Positions 1-50,864 of a DNA stretch of 50,864 nt are shown here, piece after piece. The stretch is from a virus: IMG/VR virus record IMGVR_UViG_3300021062_000004, positions 1 through 50,864 of that record; one strand, 5' to 3'. The notes under the pieces were generated by a model, which did not search any database, was not told where the DNA came from, and saw only the letters and a program-made list of their open reading frames with translations. Positions within the stretch are counted from its first letter, which is position 1. The number at the start of each line of letters is the position of its first letter. The position numbers were made by a program, and so were the translations under genes.

Positions 1-127
1 ATGGCATTCAACCGCAAGAAACGAAGAGGACTTCCCGCCCCGCGTTCCCGCAACGCCGGAATGCCTTCCGAGCAGGACCAGGAAGCGATGCTCAAGGGGC
101 TTTCGGACCGCGATGTAGAACGCATCA
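1..127. repeat. 127-bp repeat shared by both ends of the contig
   Basis: Bases 1-127 are identical to 50738-50864. The second copy restores the true upstream context of the first gene, whose start lies 3 bases after the stop of the gene ending at 50734. The sequence therefore closes into a circle of 50,737 bp. The length equals a common assembler k-mer, so it is more likely the overlap of a closed assembly graph than a packaged terminal redundancy. A 127-bp direct terminal repeat cannot be excluded from sequence alone. Confidence 0.95.
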
Positions 128-7671: not shown

Positions 7672-7844
7672 TGGGACATCATCCAGTACAAATCTCAAAA
7701 CATGGCCCAAAACTGGGCAGGAAGGCACGGAAAACCTACAAAGCCAGAGCGAAGCGATGGATGCGTAGGCTTGCAAACATTCTGCTAGAGGACGGGCCGA
7801 ACCGCTATCAGTATTCACGCACAACATGGTGGGACTGGAGTTGA
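7671..7844 (+). CDS. Small basic protein
   Basis: 57 residues, rich in Lys, Arg and Trp, starting at an ATG that overlaps the stop of the large upstream gene (ATGA). A central basic helix (GRKARKTYKARAKRWMRR) could bind nucleic acid. It ends three bases before the next large gene. Function unknown. Retained because of the coupled start and tight spacing. Confidence 0.5.
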   Translation: MGHHPVQISKHGPKLGRKARKTYKARAKRWMRRLANILLEDGPNRYQYSRTTWWDWS

Positions 7845-7847
7845 TGA

Positions 7848-9536
7848 ATGGCCAAACGCATCGACTGCTCCGAACTCTCCCGTACCCTCCACGACCTCGC
7901 CCTCAACGTCGGCTCACGCGAGCACGTCAGCACGTTCGCGGACCTGACGCGGGAGATGCAGGCCGTGCTCGGCGAGGACATGATCGACGCCGACCGGCTC
8001 GCGGCGTCCATCGTCGAGGCCACGACCGGGGCCGCACAGGAGCAGTCCGAGCTTCAGTCGAAGCTGAACCGGCTCAAACGTGAGGCACGGCAATTCCACA
8101 ACCGCACCGAGCCGCAACTGCGGGAGAAGTTCGCCAGGCAGATCGACGAGTTGAAGGGCAAGCTCCGCAGTCCGGCCGTGGCACCCGTGCGGCGTGAGAG
8201 CGTGACGCTGAGCAAGGCCCTGGAGCGGCAGGCGTTCGAGCGGGACCTGCTCCGACGCAAGATTCATCAGCGTATCCAGGACCTCAAGCCGCTCACCATC
8301 ATGCAGAAGGTGATGGAGCCGATTCACTTCCAGCGTGCGGCGTTCTTCGGCATGGACTTCGGGCAGGTTCTCCAGCACGGGAAGATGGTCCTGGTCAGCC
8401 ATCCGCTGCTGTCCATCAAGAATCTGCCGCAGATGTTCAAGTCGTTCGCCAGCGAGGGGGCGGCACACAAAGCGGACAAGGCCATCGAAGACCATCCGCT
8501 GGCCCCGCTGGCCTACCGAGCCAAGCTCAGCCTGTCCACGGACTACGGCAGCAACGTGTCCAAGGAGGAGTATTTCCAAGGGCACTTCGCCCATCGGATG
8601 CCCGGCATCAAGCACTTCGCCAGGGCCTTCCGCGTGTTCCTCAACGCCGTGAGATTCCAGTCCTTTGTCACGGCGGTCAACTCGTGGACCATCGGCGGGG
8701 AAGCCACGGACGCGGAAGCAAGGATCATCGCCAACTTCATCAACGTGACGACCGGACGCGGAGCCATCCCGGACAAGATTGTCTCCGCCGTGAACGCTTC
8801 GAGCGTCCTGGTCAACGCCGCACGCTACCAAACCTCGCGTGCCCAGTTCATCATCGGGCAGCCGCTCTGGGGCGTCTTCGGCTCCCATCGCGGCAGTGCG
8901 AAGGCCAGGGCATGGGTCGCCAAGGAGTACGCACGCACCATCATCGGGTGGGCCTTGTACCAGGGCATGCTCTATTCGGCGTTTTACCTGTGGTGGGAGC
9001 AGTCCGGCGAAGACGAGGAAAAGAAGCCGAAAATCGAAGCCAACCCCCTATCGTCGGACTTCGGAAAGATTCGCATCGGCAACACTCGCATCGACACCAC
9101 GGCGGGCATCGGGCCGTGGATCACGTTCATGTCCCGCTCCGTTCGCGGCATGACCAAGCAGCGGGACGGAGACATTGTTCCCATTCGGGGCAAGGACGTG
9201 CCGTACGGCGGACATGCCTGGGACTACTTCGCGTTCAACTTCGCCCGCAACCGTATGGCCCCGGCTCCAGGGGCCATCGTGGACGGCCTACGCGGCACCA
9301 CGCCGGACGGGCAAGAGGCCACGCTCATGCGGCTGCTGCAACAGAACTTCGTCCCGCTTGGTCCACGCAGCGTCTATGACGCCATGCGGGAGGAAGGCTT
9401 GGACAAGGGAAGCGTGCTGGGTGCCATGGCCATGTTCGGCGAGGGCGTCAGCGTGTGGGAGGATCGGGAGCAGCAGGGCAAGCCACGTCGGAAGCCGGCG
9501 AGGCCGAAGCGGCCGGAGCGGCCAAGCCCTGGTTGA
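7848..9536 (+). CDS. Large polyvalent-protein-like virion protein
   Basis: 562 residues. Residues 60-130 are a charged coiled coil. Residues 150-370 contain FINVTTGRG followed by ARYQTSRAQFIIG, a combination I associate with C-terminal modules of phage large polyvalent proteins. One hydrophobic helix with several Trp/Tyr lies near residues 365-385. The C-terminus is Pro/Lys/Arg-rich. With the 820-residue neighbour it probably forms a set of internal virion or ejection proteins. The match is from memory of sequence style, not from an alignment. It converges on the minus-strand gene ending at 9541. Confidence 0.7.
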   Translation: MAKRIDCSELSRTLHDLALNVGSREHVSTFADLTREMQAVLGEDMIDADRLAASIVEATTGAAQEQSELQSKLNRLKREARQFHNRTEPQLREKFARQIDELKGKLRSPAVAPVRRESVTLSKALERQAFERDLLRRKIHQRIQDLKPLTIMQKVMEPIHFQRAAFFGMDFGQVLQHGKMVLVSHPLLSIKNLPQMFKSFASEGAAHKADKAIEDHPLAPLAYRAKLSLSTDYGSNVSKEEYFQGHFAHRMPGIKHFARAFRVFLNAVRFQSFVTAVNSWTIGGEATDAEARIIANFINVTTGRGAIPDKIVSAVNASSVLVNAARYQTSRAQFIIGQPLWGVFGSHRGSAKARAWVAKEYARTIIGWALYQGMLYSAFYLWWEQSGEDEEKKPKIEANPLSSDFGKIRIGNTRIDTTAGIGPWITFMSRSVRGMTKQRDGDIVPIRGKDVPYGGHAWDYFAFNFARNRMAPAPGAIVDGLRGTTPDGQEATLMRLLQQNFVPLGPRSVYDAMREEGLDKGSVLGAMAMFGEGVSVWEDREQQGKPRRKPARPKRPERPSPG

Positions 9537-21327: not shown

Positions 21328-21566
21328 TGCTCGACCCAAAGGATTATGAATACGACCTTCCCAATAAACTCTTCGTCATCCAGAACGAAGTGGACACGTA
21401 CACACACGTAGGCAGTGCAAAAGCCCACGACATCTGCGGAACCGCCGTAAGTAAACAACACTGCGTAGGCGTGTACAAGCTCGTCGCCATTCAAGTTATG
21501 GAATACCGGTCGTCATCAAGAACAATCGGGACGATTTGGAAAGACGGCAAGGAAGTGAAGAAATGA
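21327..21566 (+). CDS. Small protein of unknown function
   Basis: 79 residues; ATG overlaps the upstream TGA by one base and GGGAGGGAG precedes it. Beta-rich start (NKLFVIQNEVDTYTHVG), then a helix with conserved-looking C-G-T and H-C. Not recognised. Confidence 0.6.
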   Translation: MLDPKDYEYDLPNKLFVIQNEVDTYTHVGSAKAHDICGTAVSKQHCVGVYKLVAIQVMEYRSSSRTIGTIWKDGKEVKK

Positions 21567-22459
21567 TTAGGAGCAACCCAACATGCGAGGCCACCCCGCT
21601 TTCGACGACGACGCTTGCGATCCCGTGTGGCGAGTCAACCACGGCGTCAGAGGAAATCACTACGCAAATCGTCTTGCAGCTTCCGTTCGCCCAGTACCTC
21701 GCCCGGAAGGAGCTGAGTCAGTCCGTGCTCAAGGTGGGCCGCAAGTCCATGAAGCACCTCAAGGCGGCGTGGGACGAGGAAATCCAGACCGTCCCGACCG
21801 ACGACATGATTCTCGGCTCCGCCCTGCACACGGCGTTCCTGGAGCCGGAGCAGATGCCCAACCGCGTCGTGAAGTGGACGGGCGGGGCACGTCGCGGCAA
21901 GGAGTGGGAGCAGTTCAAGGCGTACAACGCTGACAAGTACATCCTCACCGAGAACATGCACGAGCAGCTTGTGGGCATGTGCAAGTCGCTGCGGCAGCAC
22001 CGTGAGGTGAGAGCATGGCTGTCGCACATCGAGGACGTGGAGGTGAGCGGCTTCGGCATGGTGAACGGCGTGAGGATGAAGGGCCGCATCGACGCCCTTA
22101 CGTCCGACCCGCTGATTGACTTGAAGAAGGTCGCGGACGGCGACAAGGGATTGTTCCGCAAGAACGCCCTCTGGCTCGGCTACCACATCCAGGCGGCGGT
22201 GTATTGCGAGTTGTTCCAGCGTGACCGGTTCATCCTGATGACGGTGGAAAGCGACCCGCCCTACGACGTGGTTCCCTGGCAGATTTCCGACGACCTGATG
22301 AAGCGTGGCCGGCAGGAGATGCACCAACTGCTCGACCGCGTGGCCGACTGCATCGAGAAGAACAGGTGGCCCGGACGGGCCGAGACGATTGAAGTGCTGG
22401 ATGACCCAATGGGGGTGAGTGACCAGCCACATTACGGACTCAAAATCAAAGGAGCGTGA
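21563..22459 (+). CDS. RecE/Cas4-like PD-(D/E)XK exonuclease
   Basis: 298 residues, matching the phage exonuclease VIII-like group (DUF3799/RecE C-terminal fold). The nuclease core is visible: D177 in GRID, D186 and K188 in LIDLKK (the D-x-K pair), then Y207 and Q210 in GYHIQAAVY, the usual QxxxY-type helix. Upstream, DMILGSALHTAFLEPE matches the usual G-x-x-x-H metal-binding helix. The enzyme would resect double-stranded ends for recombination. Its partner is probably the next gene, with the SSB-type tail. The start overlaps the previous stop. Confidence 0.85.
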   Translation: MIRSNPTCEATPLSTTTLAIPCGESTTASEEITTQIVLQLPFAQYLARKELSQSVLKVGRKSMKHLKAAWDEEIQTVPTDDMILGSALHTAFLEPEQMPNRVVKWTGGARRGKEWEQFKAYNADKYILTENMHEQLVGMCKSLRQHREVRAWLSHIEDVEVSGFGMVNGVRMKGRIDALTSDPLIDLKKVADGDKGLFRKNALWLGYHIQAAVYCELFQRDRFILMTVESDPPYDVVPWQISDDLMKRGRQEMHQLLDRVADCIEKNRWPGRAETIEVLDDPMGVSDQPHYGLKIKGA

Positions 22460-22863: not shown

Positions 22864-22938
22864 CCCCACCTCCCGCCCCGCCGACGCGGAGCGGGGGAGT
22901 TTGAACGATGACGCGGCGTGGCCGCAGAAAGTAAAGAC

Positions 22939-23586
22939 ATGACCAATCCAAACAAGTCGCATATTACGTTGATTCTCGACCGTTCGGGGTCGATGAATTC
23001 AATCGCATCGGATGTCATCGGTGCAGTGAATGGCTTTGTAGCCGAGCAGCAGGCTGTGCCTGGCGAGTGTTCGTTCACTCTAGTTCAGTTCGATGACCAA
23101 GACCCCTATGAGACCGTTTACGACGGGCCTCTTGCAAACGCGAAGAAGCTGGACAGCAAGACCTACGTGCCTCGCGGCAGCACGCCATTGCTTGACGCCA
23201 TTGGCCGGGGCATATCTGACCTTGGAGCCAAGCTATCAGCCATGCCTCAGCACGACCGACCGGGCAAAGTGATTTTCGTGGTGCAGACGGACGGCTTGGA
23301 GAACGCCAGCCGTGAGTACGACAAGCCGCGAATCAAGGAAATGATTGAGCGGCAGACCAAGGACTACAACTGGCAGTTCGTGTTCCTTGGTGCCAATCAG
23401 GACGCCATTGCGGAGGGTGCCGCCATTGGAACAGTTCAGGCATCCTCGATGAGCTATGCCGCCACGGGCCAGGGAGTGCGGGCATCTTACGCATCGACGG
23501 CGAATGCTGTGCGTTCGTTCCGTTCAGGAACGGCTGCATCCGTGGCCTTCTCCGACGACGACCGCGTTGAAGCAATGAGCAAGTAA
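22939..23586 (+). CDS. von Willebrand factor A domain protein
   Basis: 215 residues forming one VWA domain with a complete MIDAS: DRSGSM (about residues 13-18), the Thr of RGSTPLLDAI (about 83) and the Asp of QTDGLEN (about 118). The tail after residue 160 is Ala/Ser-rich. VWA domains bind partner proteins through a metal ion and in bacteria often work with AAA+ ATPases or in phage-defence and surface systems. No AAA+ partner is seen here. The gene follows the SSB-like gene after a 75-base gap with a GC hairpin. Confidence 0.85.
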   Translation: MTNPNKSHITLILDRSGSMNSIASDVIGAVNGFVAEQQAVPGECSFTLVQFDDQDPYETVYDGPLANAKKLDSKTYVPRGSTPLLDAIGRGISDLGAKLSAMPQHDRPGKVIFVVQTDGLENASREYDKPRIKEMIERQTKDYNWQFVFLGANQDAIAEGAAIGTVQASSMSYAATGQGVRASYASTANAVRSFRSGTAASVAFSDDDRVEAMSK

Positions 23587-24498: not shown

Positions 24499-24752
24499 CC
24501 ATCGGAGGGACCCTGATGGTGCTGCTGGTCGCGGCGAGAGTCATCAAGCCGAAAGGATTCGAGATGCCACGATGCCCGAAGTGTGGAAGCGAAGTAAAGA
24601 GCAAGCCGGGAACCCCAATCGTCGAGCACACGCCGCACACCATCTCCTCGACCGGGAGAGTGTTCCCGCCGGTGGACGTGCCGGACCCGTGGGATGGCGG
24701 GTGCCCGGCGGATACGGAGATGGAGTGGACGGGGAGGGAACTTTCGGAATGA
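24480..24752 (+). CDS. Membrane-anchored zinc-knuckle protein
   Basis: 90 residues from ATG 24480 (GGAG at 24470-24473 decides it over ATG 24435). A membrane helix (residues about 3-22) is followed by CPKCGSE and an extended Pro/Thr/Asp-rich segment. A second Cys near the C-terminus could complete the site. Function unknown. Confidence 0.6.
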   Translation: MLEPALTIGGTLMVLLVAARVIKPKGFEMPRCPKCGSEVKSKPGTPIVEHTPHTISSTGRVFPPVDVPDPWDGGCPADTEMEWTGRELSE

Positions 24753-24831
24753 AGATTCAAACGAAAAACCCGTCTCCCGCTGGCTGCAAGGTGTTGGTGA
24801 CATCCGGCCAGCGGGTAGACGGGCCATTCAA

Positions 24832-24873
24832 AGCGGGTGATCGGGGTCGAACCGACGACATTCACGTTGGCAA
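24832..24873 (-). other. attP: attP core: 3' half of a tRNA-Gly(GCC) gene
   Basis: Read on the minus strand, these 42 bases have exactly the layout of tRNA positions 32-73: anticodon loop TTGCCAA (anticodon GCC), 3' anticodon strand CGTGA, five-base variable loop, T stem GTCGG/CCGAT with loop TTCGACC, acceptor CACCCGC and discriminator T, as usual for tRNA-Gly. The 5' half needed for an intact tRNA (D arm, GCGGGTG acceptor strand) is missing. A tRNA 3' half 135 bases from an integrase gene is the usual form of a phage attachment site. Confidence 0.8.
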
Positions 24874-25007
24874 GGGGAACTGTCTCAAGACTGGTTCACT
24901 CGTGCCGCGTGACGCTCTCCAGCCCGGCGGCTTGGATGTCACCAATTCCGTCGCCGTGGCTGGCGAGCATCTTGACGACACCTCAAAAACAGGTACGTTG
25001 ACCTACG

Positions 25008-25973
25008 GTGACATCCGAAGGTTCTCGACCGCAGGACAATGCGGCCCTGCGTGCCTCATACGAGGCACGGGTGCGTGGCGACATTCCCTCGCCGACCACC
25101 GTGGGCCAGTTGGTGACGGCGTGGCTCTCCCACTGCCGCAGCAATTATCCTGCCCGCCCCGGCAAACGCTCGTCCACGTTCACCAACGCCAGGGATGCGA
25201 CGCGGCCGCTTCTGGACTTGTACTCGGCACATCCGATTGCGGCACTGGGGCCGGTGGAGCTTCAAGCGGTCCGGCTCTACATGATAGATTCACGGCTGGC
25301 CCGCAAGACCATCAACGACCGCATCGCCCGCATCCGTCGCATGTACCGGTGGGCAGTGGACCGGGGCTGGATTCAGTCCAATTTAGTCGAAGGGCTAAAT
25401 ATCGACGGCCTGCGACGGAACCGATCGGCTGCGGTCGAGACGGAGCCGCATCAGGCGGTCCCAATCGATTCCATCATGCGGACGCTCCGGGACCGCAGGC
25501 TGTCACCGGTGGTCAAGGACATGGTGAGGTTCCAGCTTCGCACCGGAGCCAGGCCTGCCGAGGTCTGCGAGCTTTGCGGACGGGACATCGACACGTCAGC
25601 TTCGCCGTGGGTGTGGAAGCCGCCCCACAAAATGTCATGGCTGGAGCGGTCGCGGGTTATTCTCATCGGGGAACGGGCACAACTTGTCCTGCTCCCCCAC
25701 TTGCAGGACGGCCCCTGCTTTCTTTCGCGGCGGAACAAGCCATACCGCATCGACAGCTACCGGCAGGAGATTGTCCGGGCGGCGGAACGCCAAGGCGTCG
25801 AGCGGTGGACACCGCAGCAGGTTCGAATGCGAACGGCGACCGAAGCCGCGACGGACAGCGAGATAGCCGCCAGGGACGTGCTCGGGCACGCCGACGTAAG
25901 GACCACGCGGAAGCACTACATCGACACGCGGCACTCGCCGGAGGCGATGAGGTTCGTGCGGCGGTTCGGGTAA
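25008..25973 (+). CDS. int: Tyrosine recombinase integrase
   Basis: 321 residues. Core-binding helices lie at about 35-130 (ending TINDRIARIRRMYRWAVDRG), the catalytic domain at 155-321. Visible catalytic set: R182 in TGARPAEVC, K208 region, R273, H294 in LGHADVRTT and nucleophile Y304 in RKHY. The first position of the HxxR box is Gln270 (WTPQQVR) instead of His. The order of motifs resembles, from memory, planctomycete integrases. The GTG start lacks a ribosome binding site, and the N-terminal arm seems about 30-40 residues shorter than usual; a stop at 24999 prevents extension. It acts on the adjacent attP. Confidence 0.9.
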   Translation: MTSEGSRPQDNAALRASYEARVRGDIPSPTTVGQLVTAWLSHCRSNYPARPGKRSSTFTNARDATRPLLDLYSAHPIAALGPVELQAVRLYMIDSRLARKTINDRIARIRRMYRWAVDRGWIQSNLVEGLNIDGLRRNRSAAVETEPHQAVPIDSIMRTLRDRRLSPVVKDMVRFQLRTGARPAEVCELCGRDIDTSASPWVWKPPHKMSWLERSRVILIGERAQLVLLPHLQDGPCFLSRRNKPYRIDSYRQEIVRAAERQGVERWTPQQVRMRTATEAATDSEIAARDVLGHADVRTTRKHYIDTRHSPEAMRFVRRFG

Positions 25974-26019
25974 CGCTACAGCCTCTCATCATCGCATTCG
26001 CACAAGGAGGTGCCCATTG

Positions 26020-26724
26020 GTGAACAGCCAGGATGGTGCTTGTTTTCGCTTGTTTGAAGCCGAAGAAGATGTTGATTGGGTGCCGCCAAATCCGAAATTC
26101 AAAGCGGCACTCCGAACCATCGCCAAGAACACGGTCAACTACTTTTACTGCAATGCGGACGGCCGTTACGCATCGGACAAGTGGATGAAGCGTCAGGTCT
26201 ATTTCCGGCATAAGAGCGAGCTTTGGAGGAAGGCGAACGAGGTGTGCCTCAAGATGTATGGAACCACGCTCCAATCCATGTTCCCTCGCATGAGCATCAT
26301 CGCCCTGTCGGATTATTACGAGGCAATCCGGAAGTCGTATTACAAGCATTTCAGGGACAAGCAGAGTGTTTGCGACGCTCCGCTGTTCGGCGACAAGGCG
26401 TCCCTGTCAGTCATCTACGCATATGCGGCCACGCATGAGGACTGCCCGTCCCGCGTGCTGAAAATCGGCTTCACCACCAAGCCTGTGGATGATTACATCG
26501 AGAAGCAGAACAAGCACCGCAAGCCCGTCAAGCTCGGCTCCATGATCGGAACGAAGGAAGATGAGGCGGCGTTGAAAGCCCGATTCGGCAAATACGTGGC
26601 GGCGGGCGACGAGTTCTTTTGGCCCAACAGCGAGATTATCGAGTGGATTCGCGACGCCATGAAGGACGACCTCGCCGCCGGATTCGACAACATCATCAAG
26701 ATTGAGTTTGGCTACAAGGGATGA
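26020..26724 (+). CDS. GIY-YIG-like (T5orf172 type) protein
   Basis: 234 residues from GTG 26020; AAGGAGG at 26004-26010 also allows TTG 26017. The C-terminal half has the order of a T5orf172/GIY-YIG domain: VIYAYA strand, VLKIGFTTK, a Glu/Lys helix, then DEAALKARFGKY and DEFFWPNSEIIEWI. The usual catalytic Arg after KIGxT is replaced by Asp, so nuclease activity is uncertain. The N-terminal 130 residues are aromatic and basic, not recognised. Located between integrase and a winged-helix gene. Confidence 0.65.
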   Translation: MNSQDGACFRLFEAEEDVDWVPPNPKFKAALRTIAKNTVNYFYCNADGRYASDKWMKRQVYFRHKSELWRKANEVCLKMYGTTLQSMFPRMSIIALSDYYEAIRKSYYKHFRDKQSVCDAPLFGDKASLSVIYAYAATHEDCPSRVLKIGFTTKPVDDYIEKQNKHRKPVKLGSMIGTKEDEAALKARFGKYVAAGDEFFWPNSEIIEWIRDAMKDDLAAGFDNIIKIEFGYKG

Positions 26725-27044
26725 ACATGACAGCAGCAACATTTCCCCTCTTCGCCCCCCTCTCCCGCCGCACCGACCCCATCACCTCCCACATGGCGGA
26801 GCGGAAGCTTCGCCGCAGCGGCACGCTCGGCAAGCGGGCGGCGTTCGCCCTGGCGTGCGTGAGGGAATCACCGGACCGGACCGCCGCCGAGCTGGAGAAG
26901 AAGTACGGCGTCCGCGACGGTGTGATACGCAAGCGGCTGGCGGGTTTGGCGAAGGCCGGCCTCATCCGTCGCGGCCCCATCGCAAAGTGCTCGGTGACGC
27001 TGAGCATGTGCGTGACGTGGTATGTGCCGGAGGTGAGCACATGA
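26721..27044 (+). CDS. Winged-helix DNA-binding protein
   Basis: 107 residues. Residues 18-30 (TDPITSHMAERK) and the winged helix at about 38-85 (RTAAELEKKYGVRDGVIRKR, then LAGLAKAGLIRRG) match a MarR-like phage family. It ends in a beta hairpin wing. ATGA overlaps on both sides couple it to the GIY-YIG-like and methyltransferase genes. Likely regulates or recruits replication/modification functions. Confidence 0.75.
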   Translation: MNMTAATFPLFAPLSRRTDPITSHMAERKLRRSGTLGKRAAFALACVRESPDRTAAELEKKYGVRDGVIRKRLAGLAKAGLIRRGPIAKCSVTLSMCVTWYVPEVST

Positions 27045-27682
27045 AGCCCTATTACCACGACGAGGCGAGCGGCATCACCATCTACCACGGCGATTGCCGG
27101 GAGGTGGTTCCGACGCTGAGCGGCATTGATGCTGTCGTGACAGACCCGCCGTATGGCATTGCCGGCAAGTGGAAAGGCGGTTTTTCGACAGCTCATGGAT
27201 GGGGTCGTGCAGGCCAGATGGCGAACAAGCGGAATGAGTGGGACACAGAACCGCCGTCGAAAGAAACCATCGACCTCATGCTCTCAACTGGAAGTCAGCA
27301 CATTATTTGGGGCGGAAATTATTTCCAACTTCCTGTTTCGAGGTGCTGGCTGGTTTGGAATAAGCCCGAACGTGGATTCTCTCTTGCTGAGTGCGAACTG
27401 GCTTGGACTGACTTTGACAACGTGGCCCGTGTTTATGACTGCTGCCGAAGCGAACCAGACCGCGTTCATCCGACACAAAAGCCGCTTGCTTTGATGTCGT
27501 GGTGTATCAACAAAACTGATGGTTCAATCCTCGACCCCTTCATGGGCAGCGGCACCACGCTCGTCGCCGCCAAGCTCCAGGGCCGCCGTGCCATCGGCAT
27601 CGAAATCGAGGAACGCTATTGCGAGATAGCCGCCAAGCGGCTGGCTCAAAACTCATTGTTTAGCATGGGAGGTGTCGCATGA
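27041..27682 (+). CDS. Beta-class N4-cytosine/N6-adenine DNA methyltransferase
   Basis: 213 residues. The catalytic motif DPPY is at residues 35-38 (TDPPYG) and the SAM-binding FMGSGTT at about 167. This order (catalytic first, SAM motif last) defines the beta class. The target recognition part between them is short. The Gly-Ile-Glu-Ile-Glu-Glu-Arg-Tyr strand after FMGSGTT is also typical. No restriction enzyme gene lies nearby, so the enzyme is an orphan that probably protects phage DNA or alters its expression. Confidence 0.9.
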   Translation: MKPYYHDEASGITIYHGDCREVVPTLSGIDAVVTDPPYGIAGKWKGGFSTAHGWGRAGQMANKRNEWDTEPPSKETIDLMLSTGSQHIIWGGNYFQLPVSRCWLVWNKPERGFSLAECELAWTDFDNVARVYDCCRSEPDRVHPTQKPLALMSWCINKTDGSILDPFMGSGTTLVAAKLQGRRAIGIEIEERYCEIAAKRLAQNSLFSMGGVA

Positions 27683-28159: not shown

Positions 28160-28366
28160 ATGGACAAGGCGAACGTGAATGGAGGCGTGTTGAAGGGTTC
28201 TTACATCAACGAAGCGATGGGCGAGAAGACGTGCTACGTCATTCGGGTCATCGACGAGTTCTATCCACAGAACAGCGATGGTCGAGGTCGCGGCGGAGCT
28301 GGACGCCGCACCCAAAGTGAGTACCGCTACAACCCGGTCAAGAAGACATGGGAGGTTCAGCCATGA
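28160..28366 (+). CDS. Small protein between replication genes
   Basis: 68 residues from ATG 28160 (GGAG at 28147-28150); ATG 28145 is also in frame. Strand-rich with a Gly/Arg loop (GRGRGGAGRRTQ) and a C-terminal strand with YNPVKKTWEV. It overlaps the DnaN start by four bases. Function unknown. Confidence 0.6.
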   Translation: MDKANVNGGVLKGSYINEAMGEKTCYVIRVIDEFYPQNSDGRGRGGAGRRTQSEYRYNPVKKTWEVQP

Positions 28367-29457
28367 AACTGAAGATCACCCGCGAGCCGTTCGAGTCGGC
28401 CCTGGCGTTCTGCGGACGAGTCATCCCCGCCCGCACGCCGCAGGAATCGCTCCGCAACGTGCGGCTGGACGTGGACGAACGTGAGCTGAAGGCGTCCGCG
28501 ACGAATCTCAGCAGCCTCGTCAGCAAGTCCGTGGACAACGTGGACATCGCCTGCGGCGGCTCATGCCTCGTGAGCCACGAACTCCTGCACGGCATCGTCA
28601 AGTCGTCCGGCGACGAGGCGGTGTCGCTGGAACTTCACGGCGGCACGCTCGTCATCCGCACCGGCAGCGGCACATTCAAGCTGCCCACCGCCGGCCTCAG
28701 CACGTGGCCGGAGATGGACGCGGAGCTGGACACGCCGGATTCGTCCGTCATCACCACCGCCAACCACCTGCGGACGGCGTTGAAGTTCGTGAACGACGCC
28801 CAGGAAGAGTTTGAGGTGCAAGGCTATGCCACGACCTCCGTGCTGCTGGAGTCCACGGGCAAGAAGGCGTCGATGGTGGCCGTCAACGGCAACTGCATGT
28901 TCATCACGTCCTTCCCGTGCAGCGGAAGCGTGGTGGAGTCGATGCTGCTTCCGCCGTCACTCCGCACCTATCTCCTGTCGGAGCTGAAGGACGACGAGGA
29001 CGAGTGCTCCATCGAGAGGCACGGCAACCGGTTCGCCATCCGTGTCGGCGAATCCGTGCTGTTTGTGTCAACGCTCTTTGAAGGCCAGTTCCCGCCATAC
29101 AAGGACATGGTGGCGAAGAAGTGGGACGGCAACTTCACCGCCGGCGTCAAGACGCTCGACGACGCCGCCCGCACCATGCTCCTGCTGACGGACGAGGTGT
29201 CGCGGGCCGTCAACGTGGACTTCAACGGCAGCACCATCCGGTTCGCGGCGGCGACGGCCTCCATCGGAGAAGGCGACATCAGCGTCGGCGTGGAGTCCCT
29301 GGACGGGTGCAAGCCCATCGCCGCGAACGTGAAGCTGCTGCACGACATGTTGCGGCGGTTCGACGCGAAGCAGCAGGTCAAGGTGAAACTGGCGAAGACG
29401 ATGGCCCGGTTCGAGCAGGGCGACAACGTGGCCGTGCTGGCATTGGTGAACAGATGA
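28363..29457 (+). CDS. dnaN: DNA polymerase III beta subunit (sliding clamp)
   Basis: 364 residues, full bacterial length (about 366). The three-fold clamp layout is clear: N-terminal MKLKITREPFESALAFCGRV, middle domain around residues 130-245 with FINxF-like AVNGNCMF and SGSVVESMLLPP, and a third domain from about 250 with FEGQFPPYKDMV. It ends VAVLALVNR; bacterial clamps usually end in a Pro-Met-Arg type tail, so the last residues are altered. It would tether a polymerase to DNA, presumably the host's, because no phage polymerase is present. GGAGG precedes the ATG. Confidence 0.9.
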   Translation: MKLKITREPFESALAFCGRVIPARTPQESLRNVRLDVDERELKASATNLSSLVSKSVDNVDIACGGSCLVSHELLHGIVKSSGDEAVSLELHGGTLVIRTGSGTFKLPTAGLSTWPEMDAELDTPDSSVITTANHLRTALKFVNDAQEEFEVQGYATTSVLLESTGKKASMVAVNGNCMFITSFPCSGSVVESMLLPPSLRTYLLSELKDDEDECSIERHGNRFAIRVGESVLFVSTLFEGQFPPYKDMVAKKWDGNFTAGVKTLDDAARTMLLLTDEVSRAVNVDFNGSTIRFAAATASIGEGDISVGVESLDGCKPIAANVKLLHDMLRRFDAKQQVKVKLAKTMARFEQGDNVAVLALVNR

Positions 29458-37465: not shown

Positions 37466-37789
37466 ATGGGACTCCGTTATCTCACCGTCACAACGTCCGG
37501 CAACACCGCCGCAAACATGGCTGACGCTTCCGGCAAAGAAGCGGGGGCTGTCGGAGTCATCACTGATGTCGAACTGAGCGGCGGCACGGACACCAGTGCC
37601 GACATCACCATCGCCGACCCGGTTGGAACGGTGTTCAGCGTGACCAGCGTGGACCTCACCACCACGCTTCGTTACAAGGTCGATGACGCCGCCATCAAGA
37701 GAAACGCAGTCGCCGGCAAGCTCACGGTGACTCCGGCCAACACGACCGGGGCGGCTGTCGTGCGGGTGTGGGTCTCAGAAAACAGGTAA
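37466..37789 (+). CDS. Small beta-rich virion protein
   Basis: 107 residues, starting two bases after the previous stop. Alternating Thr/Val/Ala strands (GVITDVELSGGTDTSADITI) resemble small capsid decoration or fibre-base proteins. The stop overlaps the TerL start (TAATG), so it is coupled to terminase expression. Confidence 0.65.
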   Translation: MGLRYLTVTTSGNTAANMADASGKEAGAVGVITDVELSGGTDTSADITIADPVGTVFSVTSVDLTTTLRYKVDDAAIKRNAVAGKLTVTPANTTGAAVVRVWVSENR

Positions 37790-39261
37790 TGGTCGCCATC
37801 GCCAACATCAAGGTCGAGCGTGACTACACGCTGTACGGCGGCCTGGCGGATGTCAGGGACGACATCCTGTCGGGCCGCATGCCGCCGGAGACGCTGGTGG
37901 AAGGTCCGTCGCGAACCGGCAAGAGCCTTGGCATCGGCCTGGCCCTCGCGGGTCTCATGGAGGAGCAGCCGGGGACCAAGGTGCTCATCGTCCGCAAGAC
38001 CCTGAAGTCGATGCGGGAGACCGTCCTGGCCACCTGGGAGGACGAGGTTCTTCCGTCCGGCCACGAGGCGTTGCGGGCCAACAACCGCCACTCGCAGAAC
38101 CCCCGGTACCAGTTCAACAACGGCTCGCTGGCCGTCGCCACCGGATGCAACGGCCCCGACGACATCGAACGCATCAAGTCGTCGGAGTGGGACATCATCT
38201 GGTTCAACGAAGCCACGGACGGCACGTTGAACGATTGGGAGACGCTGCTGACCCGCCTCTCCGGCAAGGCCCCCATCGGCCGCTTCGCCATCGCGGACTG
38301 CAACCCCGTGGCCAAGACGCACTGGCTCAACCGCCGGGCCTCGACGCCGAAGATGCGGCGGGTCAAGACCACACTGGACGACAACCCGCGATTCGTGGAC
38401 CAGCGGACCGGCGAGTACACCGAAGACGGGATGCGATATCTTCGCGTGCTCGACAATCTCACCGGCGTCCGCAAGCTGCGGCTTCGCCACGGACTTTGGG
38501 CAGTCGCCGAGGGGGCGATCTGGGGGAACTTCAACGAAGACGTCCACATCATTGACGCCGCCATCAAGCCCAACGTGCAGAGTGGCTTCTATGAGCTTCG
38601 GTTCAATGATGGCCGCGTCGTCCCCTTGACATGGTTCTTCGCGGGCGTGGACTGGGGCTGGCGTGCTCCGGGATGTCTCCTGGTGTTCGGAATCGACAAG
38701 GACCGCAACGCCTACTGCATCCATGAGATTTACATGACCCAGAAGGACAAGATTTGGTGGGCGGAGAAGGCCGAGAAGCTGCGTCGCAAGTACGACATCC
38801 AGCGGTTCGTGTGCGACAGTGCCGAGCCGGACTCCATCGACCTGTTCAACAAGCGGATGGGCAAGGTCGGCGGCCACTGGATTGCCCAACCGGTGAAGAA
38901 GCACGCCCTGGGCTTTGAGGCTTCGGCGTCCATCGTGCGTGAGCGGCTGGACCGTGGCGGGCTGTTCTTCCTTCGCGACTGCCTGGATGAAATCGACCCG
39001 TTGCTGGTCGAGGAACGCAAGCCCGTAAGCGTGCTGGAGGAGATTCCGGCCTACGAGTACCACGAGGTCAAGGACGGGCAGCCCATCAAAGAGGAACCCA
39101 GGAAGGATGGCGACGACCACGGCTGCGACGCCGTGAGGTATGGCATGTCCTTCCTCGACGACAACAACTGGCAACCCGTGCCGGAAGAGAGCAAGTTCAA
39201 GCCCGGCAGCTTCGGAAGGCTGCTCGGGCACGACACCATGAAATTCAGGAGATCAGCATGA
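37789..39261 (+). CDS. terL: Terminase large subunit
   Basis: 490 residues. ATPase: Walker A GPSRTGKS (Lys45), Walker B WDIIWFNEA (D135 and catalytic E141). Nuclease of the RNase H fold: D288 in GVDWGW, D343 in VCDSAEPD and D447 in HGCDAVRYG, giving the acidic triad. The length is usual. The enzyme pumps DNA into proheads and cuts it. The start is the ATG overlapping the upstream stop. The DUF5681 protein at 9726 is the only visible small-subunit candidate. Confidence 0.95.
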   Translation: MVAIANIKVERDYTLYGGLADVRDDILSGRMPPETLVEGPSRTGKSLGIGLALAGLMEEQPGTKVLIVRKTLKSMRETVLATWEDEVLPSGHEALRANNRHSQNPRYQFNNGSLAVATGCNGPDDIERIKSSEWDIIWFNEATDGTLNDWETLLTRLSGKAPIGRFAIADCNPVAKTHWLNRRASTPKMRRVKTTLDDNPRFVDQRTGEYTEDGMRYLRVLDNLTGVRKLRLRHGLWAVAEGAIWGNFNEDVHIIDAAIKPNVQSGFYELRFNDGRVVPLTWFFAGVDWGWRAPGCLLVFGIDKDRNAYCIHEIYMTQKDKIWWAEKAEKLRRKYDIQRFVCDSAEPDSIDLFNKRMGKVGGHWIAQPVKKHALGFEASASIVRERLDRGGLFFLRDCLDEIDPLLVEERKPVSVLEEIPAYEYHEVKDGQPIKEEPRKDGDDHGCDAVRYGMSFLDDNNWQPVPEESKFKPGSFGRLLGHDTMKFRRSA

Positions 39262-50734: not shown

Positions 50735-50864
50735 CCTATGGCATTCAACCGCAAGAAACGAAGAGGACTTCCCGCCCCGCGTTCCCGCAACGCCGGAATG
50801 CCTTCCGAGCAGGACCAGGAAGCGATGCTCAAGGGGCTTTCGGACCGCGATGTAGAACGCATCA

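What the first reader, a model, noticed from the sequence alone, without database searches (positions are those of the whole stretch)
24832..24873. attP is the 3' half of tRNA-Gly(GCC), so the integration site in the host can be named
Read on the minus strand, the 42 bases fit tRNA positions 32-73 without a gap: anticodon loop TTGCCAA, variable loop of five, T arm, CACCCGC acceptor strand and discriminator T. The 5' half is replaced by unrelated sequence. The element is 135 bases from the integrase start. Established knowledge: tRNA-integrating phages carry the tRNA 3' end in attP so that the gene is rebuilt on integration.
Basis: partly seen in the sequence, partly recalled or inferred. Interest (0 to 1): 0.8.

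Follow-up and report, generated by a model that had tools for sequence, protein, structure and literature searches.

The report
Phage attachment site from tRNA-Gly gene
This complete phage genome carries, next to its integrase gene, the last 42 bases of a bacterial glycine tRNA gene, almost certainly the site by which it inserts into a tRNA-Gly(GCC) gene of its host and rebuilds it; this is a common phage strategy, and the host itself could not be identified.

Summary
On the minus strand, 24873-24832 is a gapless tRNA-Gly(GCC) 3' half (positions 32-73). It matches complete phage-borne tRNA-Gly(GCC) genes at 41/42 (chance: 22-27/42) and the Rfam tRNA model 31-71. It lies 135 bases before the start codon of a tyrosine integrase (25008-25973; Pfam PF00589). 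Joined to the 5' half of a complete tRNA-Gly gene, it folds as tRNA-Gly(gcc).

New here: (1) A perfect 12-base inverted repeat, TTGGTGACATCC (24794-24805/24934-24945), is centred within half a base of the anticodon-loop centre, with a third copy over the integrase start; these are candidate integrase or accessory sites. (2) Nine bases past the discriminator, on the tRNA-sense strand, lies the strongest terminator-like hairpin of the genome (24764-24823), so the phage side appears to terminate the rebuilt gene. (3) An unrelated phage contig (L049) has a tRNA-Gly(GCC) half 59 bases from an integrase; a third half site ends contig L023.

"attP" is supported. "The host site can be named" is half true: the target is tRNA-Gly(GCC), but no GTDB r220 genome holds the 42-mer, exactly or with one base free. 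No attL/attR was seen.

An ordinary member of a known class.

The parts
24832..24873 (-). attP common core: 3' half of tRNA-Gly(GCC), tRNA positions 32-73
   Evidence: 41/42 to complete tRNA-Gly(GCC) genes in other phage contigs (L021, L031, L005 and others); Rfam tRNA model 31-71; with an L031 5' half ARAGORN calls tRNA-Gly(gcc)
24867..24873 (-). predicted 7-base overlap (strand-exchange) region = anticodon loop TTGCCAA
   Evidence: inference: the identity to tRNA begins here; an anticodon loop as 7-bp overlap region is described in PMC8371274
24769..24823 (-). terminator-like hairpin directly downstream of the tRNA half, on the tRNA-sense strand
   Evidence: hairpin about -34 kcal/mol (hairpin plus T tail -36.7), strongest T-run hairpin in the genome, next -25.9; as DNA z = -5.9
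24764..24768 (-). TTTTT run that follows the hairpin
24794..24805 (+). repeat copy 1, TTGGTGACATCC (candidate arm-type or accessory site); lies in the loop region of the hairpin
24934..24945 (-). repeat copy 2, TTGGTGACATCC, inverted; the dyad with copy 1 is centred at 24869.5, the anticodon-loop centre being 24870
25005..25016 (+). repeat copy 3, ACGGTGACATCC (10 of 12), overlapping the integrase GTG start
25008..25973 (+). tyrosine integrase, 321 aa
   Evidence: PF00589 6.9e-12; phrog_1 7e-28

Best explanation
The 42 bases are the common core of attP of a temperate phage. Its tyrosine integrase exchanges strands at the anticodon loop between attP and the tRNA-Gly(GCC) gene of an unidentified bacterial host. 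Integration joins the host's 5' half to the phage's 3' half, which restores a complete tRNA-Gly gene at one prophage end, and pushes the old 3' half to the other end. The phage side also carries a strong terminator nine bases past the tRNA 3' end, so the rebuilt gene would be transcribed from the host promoter and stopped by phage DNA before it runs antisense into phage genes. The repeats TTGGTGACATCC on both sides of the core and over the integrase start are probably binding sites for the integrase or for a directionality factor. Shown by sequence: the tRNA half, the integrase, the repeats, the hairpin. Inferred: crossover position, integration, tRNA restoration in vivo, and what binds the repeats.
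For: tRNA half. Integrase 135 bases away. Restoration in silico: the chimera gives tRNA-Gly(gcc), attP alone gives nothing. No phage tRNA gene that would make restoration unnecessary. Repeats: the only 10-mer present three times within 250 bp in the whole 50.9 kb, and no such triple in 60 dinucleotide shuffles; the 12-base dyad is centred at 24869.5 against the anticodon-loop centre 24870. Terminator on the tRNA-sense strand. Independent example: L049 has a tRNA-Gly(GCC) half 59 bases from the end of a tyrosine integrase gene (7924-9000 -) that shares only weak similarity with the one here. Published parallels: 30-45 bp cores holding the 3' tRNA half (PMC10865867); 44-bp tRNA-Leu core with 10-bp arm-type repeats on both sides and more over the integrase start codon (PMC3706429); 2083 islands with anticodon-centred sites (PMC4383910).
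Against: No bacterial genome with the matching attB was found, and no attL/attR. The integrase has only about 30 residues before its core-binding-like region, so an arm-binding domain for the repeats is not evident, and its structure prediction was unusable (pLDDT 35). Perfect 12-base inverted repeats within 400 bases occur about 2.5 times per shuffled genome, so the weight rests on the third copy and on the centring, which was noticed after the fact.
Confidence: 0.93

Rival explanations
1. The segment is the remains of a phage-borne tRNA-Gly(GCC) gene whose 5' half decayed; it has nothing to do with integration.
For: The closest matches found are phage-borne tRNA-Gly(GCC) genes.
Against: The 3' half is preserved to the discriminator base while the 5' half is wholly gone, the break is exactly at the anticodon loop, an integrase gene starts 135 bases away, and no other tRNA is in the genome. 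Unlike most of those phage genes it encodes no CCA. L049 repeats the arrangement beside another integrase.
Confidence: 0.04
2. A former attP that is no longer used: the present integrase acts at another site in the host genome.
For: No attB-bearing genome was found; the integrase has no close relatives in the collections searched, so its site preference is not known.
Against: The half is intact, still gives a foldable tRNA, lies directly upstream of the integrase and is flanked by repeats centred on it.
Confidence: 0.03
3. The TTGGTGACATCC repeats are operators for a regulator of the integrase promoter, not recombination sites; the attP reading of the 42 bases is unaffected (so this rival concerns one part only and its confidence is not exclusive of the best explanation).
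For: One copy overlaps the integrase start codon; the integrase N-terminus looks too short for a lambda-type arm domain.
Against: Two copies are symmetric about the predicted crossover at about 70 bases on each side, which an operator would not need.
Confidence: 0.35

Closest known systems
attP of Cluster J mycobacteriophages such as Omega (tRNA-Leu; PMC3706429)
   Same: Common core of 44 bases from the anticodon loop to the tRNA 3' end; 10-base repeats on both sides; similar repeats over the integrase start codon; tRNA rebuilt on integration.
   Different: There attP is downstream of the integrase gene and the target is tRNA-Leu; here attP is upstream and the target tRNA-Gly(GCC). The repeat sequence differs, and no phage record matched the integrase.
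Boilgate attP (tRNA-Lys-TTT; PMC10865867)
   Same: 43-base core covering the tRNA 3' half, putative arm-type sites, tRNA rebuilt.
   Different: Five mismatches to attB are known there; here attB is unknown.
Anticodon-centred (class A) genomic islands of the Islander database (PMC4383910)
   Same: 3' tDNA fragment, tyrosine integrase, anticodon-loop crossover.
   Different: Islander cases are seen integrated; this one is seen only in the free (circular) form.
L049, IMGVR_UViG_3300031576_000227
   Same: tRNA-Gly(GCC) half beside a tyrosine integrase.
   Different: Half is 35/42 identical, downstream of the integrase and on its strand; integrase similarity is weak.

Membership tests
tyrosine-integrase attP in a tRNA gene, anticodon-loop class | tyrosine integrase gene adjacent | tested here: met
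   PF00589 6.9e-12, start 135 bases from the core
tyrosine-integrase attP in a tRNA gene, anticodon-loop class | tRNA 3' fragment of about 30-45 bases starting in the anticodon loop and reaching the 3' end | tested here: met
   42 bases, positions 32-73
tyrosine-integrase attP in a tRNA gene, anticodon-loop class | recombination restores a complete tRNA gene | tested here: met
   in silico only, with a 5' half borrowed from L031 because the host is unknown
tyrosine-integrase attP in a tRNA gene, anticodon-loop class | matching attB in a host genome | tested here: inconclusive
   0 genomes with the 42-mer, exact or with position 13 free; the host species may not be in the collection
tyrosine-integrase attP in a tRNA gene, anticodon-loop class | flanking arm-type sites bound by the integrase | tested here: inconclusive
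   candidate repeats found; binding unknown and no clear arm-binding domain
tyrosine-integrase attP in a tRNA gene, anticodon-loop class | attL/attR junctions or recombination seen | not testable with these tools
   no lysogen or reads available
tRNA-dependent lysogeny (Fionnbharth type) | short core of about 8-10 bases that does not rebuild the tRNA | tested here: not met
   core is 42 bases and rebuilds a tRNA in silico
tRNA-dependent lysogeny (Fionnbharth type) | phage carries a complete tRNA of the same isotype | tested here: not met
   no tRNA gene in the window
SSV/Mx8-type attP inside the integrase gene | attP lies within the integrase coding sequence | tested here: not met
   core ends 135 bases before the integrase start, with an in-frame stop at 24999-25001

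The most novel reading that the evidence does not exclude
An attP that brings a complete 3' unit for the rebuilt tRNA gene, its 3' half plus a dedicated terminator, and whose accessory sites form a near-symmetric dyad about the crossover at roughly 70 bases on each side, unlike the asymmetric lambda attP, used by an integrase with hardly any N-terminal domain.
Probability: 0.25. Interest if true: 0.4.

Novelty: new member of a known kind. Interest (0 to 1): 0.27.

Why it matters
It shows that this complete but nearly relative-less phage is very probably temperate and tells where to look for its prophage: at tRNA-Gly(GCC) genes whose last 42 bases read as given, probably without an encoded CCA. 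That gives a concrete handle for linking an uncultivated phage to its host, although the held genomes did not contain that host. The terminator carried next to the tRNA half, if general, would add a detail to how phages keep a disrupted tRNA gene working.

Tried and rejected
Host search by exact 42-mer and with position 13 free in GTDB r220: nothing; the second pattern was probably still too strict, and the scans were then spent. The genome search could not be centred on a bacterial genome from a virus record or a taxon name. Integrase relatives: none in IMG/VR, the phage records or PLSDB. The 36% match to that recalled sequence is not used as evidence and no host phylum is claimed. Other genes as probes: terminase gave two contigs at 33% identity; phrog_7371 and DnaN-like probes gave none. 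Plasmid-record tRNA matches (Methylobacterium, Sinorhizobium) turned out to be tRNA-Gly(CCC), not the target. One pattern meant to exclude intact tRNAs had its excluding base misplaced, so it also returned intact ones; it was filtered by script. Structure prediction of the integrase from one sequence was useless. Text search for the loop sequence in papers found only unrelated hits. The standard terminator scan missed the hairpin because it allows loops of 3-8 only.

Full report
OBSERVATION. The minus strand of 24873-24832 reads TTGCCAACGTGAATGTCGTCGGTTCGACCCCGATCACCCGCT and fits tRNA positions 32-73 without a gap. Against the 3' half of a complete tRNA-Gly(GCC) gene it scores 41/42; the next best place in the window scores 25/42 and 20 shuffles at most 27/42. 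The Rfam tRNA model aligns the same 42 bases to positions 31-71, up to its 3' end, as a 5'-truncated match (18.1 bits, E 0.087 against all families). Nothing like a tRNA 5' half precedes it (best 16/31), and the window has no complete tRNA gene.

RELATED SEQUENCES. Scans of IMG/VR with the T-arm/acceptor 25-mer and with looser 42-mers returned mostly complete tRNA-Gly genes; the best tRNA-Gly(GCC) ones differ from the window at a single base. Two other contigs carry a half rather than a whole gene. L049 (32 kb contig) has a tRNA-Gly(GCC) half at 7821-7865 on the minus strand, and a tyrosine integrase (7924-9000, minus strand; PF00589 1.1e-20) whose gene ends 59 bases from it. L023 has a half (40/42) seven bases from the end of a 22.6 kb phage contig, beside a small helix-turn-helix-like protein gene and another small gene; no tyrosine integrase was found in that contig. 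The window and L049 integrases share only weak similarity over 72 residues, so the two cases are essentially independent. In all three the discriminator T is not followed by CCA.

SURROUNDINGS. The integrase at 25008-25973 is a tyrosine recombinase. Around the core a perfect 12-base inverted repeat TTGGTGACATCC lies at 24794-24805 and 24934-24945; its centre is 24869.5, while the anticodon loop 24867-24873 has its centre at 24870. A third copy of its 10-base core is at 25007-25016, across the integrase start codon. This is the only 10-mer occurring three times within 250 bases anywhere in the window, and 60 dinucleotide shuffles gave none. The inverted repeat alone is not rare (2.5 per shuffled genome), so the strength lies in the third copy and the centring, which I noticed after the fact. 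These are candidate arm-type or accessory sites. The integrase start is limited by a stop at 24999-25001 and leaves only about 30 residues before the core-binding-like region (my reading of the sequence), so what binds them is open.

TERMINATOR. Read on the tRNA-sense strand, nine bases after the discriminator ends and the hairpin CCCGTCTACCCGCTGGC...GCCAGCGGGAGACGGG begins, followed by TTTTT (24823-24764). Among all T-runs with a hairpin on either strand it is by far the strongest (-34.3; next -25.9 and -18.4 kcal/mol); as DNA it folds at z = -5.9. The genes identified around it are on the plus strand, so a minus-strand terminator makes most sense for a tRNA gene rebuilt by integration. Whether it was captured from a host together with the tRNA end cannot be told without the host sequence.

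MECHANISM. Best reading: attP core of a temperate phage that integrates at the anticodon loop of tRNA-Gly(GCC). Joining the attP half to the 5' half of a complete gene (L031) gives a tRNA-Gly(gcc) that ARAGORN recognises, while attP alone gives none. The published parallels fit closely: common cores of 30-45 bases containing the 3' tRNA half (PMC10865867); a 44-base tRNA-Leu core with 10-base repeats on both sides and over the integrase start codon in Cluster J mycobacteriophages (PMC3706429); the anticodon loop as the 7-base overlap region (PMC8371274); 2083 islands with anticodon-centred sites (PMC4383910). It is not tRNA-dependent lysogeny: the core is long and the phage has no tRNA of its own.

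WHAT IS NOT SHOWN. No host. The 42-mer, exact or with one base free, is in none of the held GTDB r220 genomes, and the tools gave no other way to bacterial genomes from a virus record. The integrase has no relatives in the phage, plasmid or viral collections at the sensitivity used. So the target gene type can be named, not the host, and integration itself is inferred.

VERDICT. A real and well-supported attP, ordinary in kind; the symmetric repeats and the adjoining terminator are the only details beyond the textbook picture.

Noticed in passing
window 1-127 and 50738-50864: Exact direct terminal repeat of 127 bases: the record is probably a complete, circularly closed phage genome of about 50.7 kb.
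   Followed up: partly
window 24764-24823 (-): Strongest terminator-like hairpin of the genome, nine bases past the tRNA 3' end on the tRNA-sense strand; one copy of TTGGTGACATCC lies in its loop region.
   Followed up: yes
window 24749-25007 (+): An open frame with ATG overlapping the stop of the previous frame runs through the attP core and on in another frame over the integrase start (part of a 483-aa open frame, 24572-26023); no family match. Probably not a gene, but not excluded.
   Followed up: partly
window 28348-29457 and 26702-27682: The phage encodes a DNA polymerase sliding clamp (DnaN-like, TIGR00663 1.1e-28, below the curated cut-off) and a DNA methyltransferase (phrog_67 8e-45).
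   Followed up: no
window 21536-22459 and 22918-23586: RecE-like exonuclease VIII (phrog_412) and a phrog_7371 protein whose relatives are mainly in actinobacterial phages (42-44% identity for the best).
   Followed up: no
window 37768-39261: Terminase large subunit, nearest named relatives Streptomyces phage Dagobah and Thermobifida phage P1312 at 33%; no close relative of this phage was found with the genes tried.
   Followed up: no
L023 11347-11399: Another phage contig ends seven bases after a tRNA-Gly(GCC) half; the bases before the half (GACGACATTC) are an inverted copy of part of it.
   Followed up: partly
L025 7247-7678 and L054 346-766: Phage contigs carrying predicted tmRNA genes, marked as permuted in L025, with tags ANANTFKYMQVDVALNDDAFALAA and ANNNYYFEESRLAA.
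   Followed up: no
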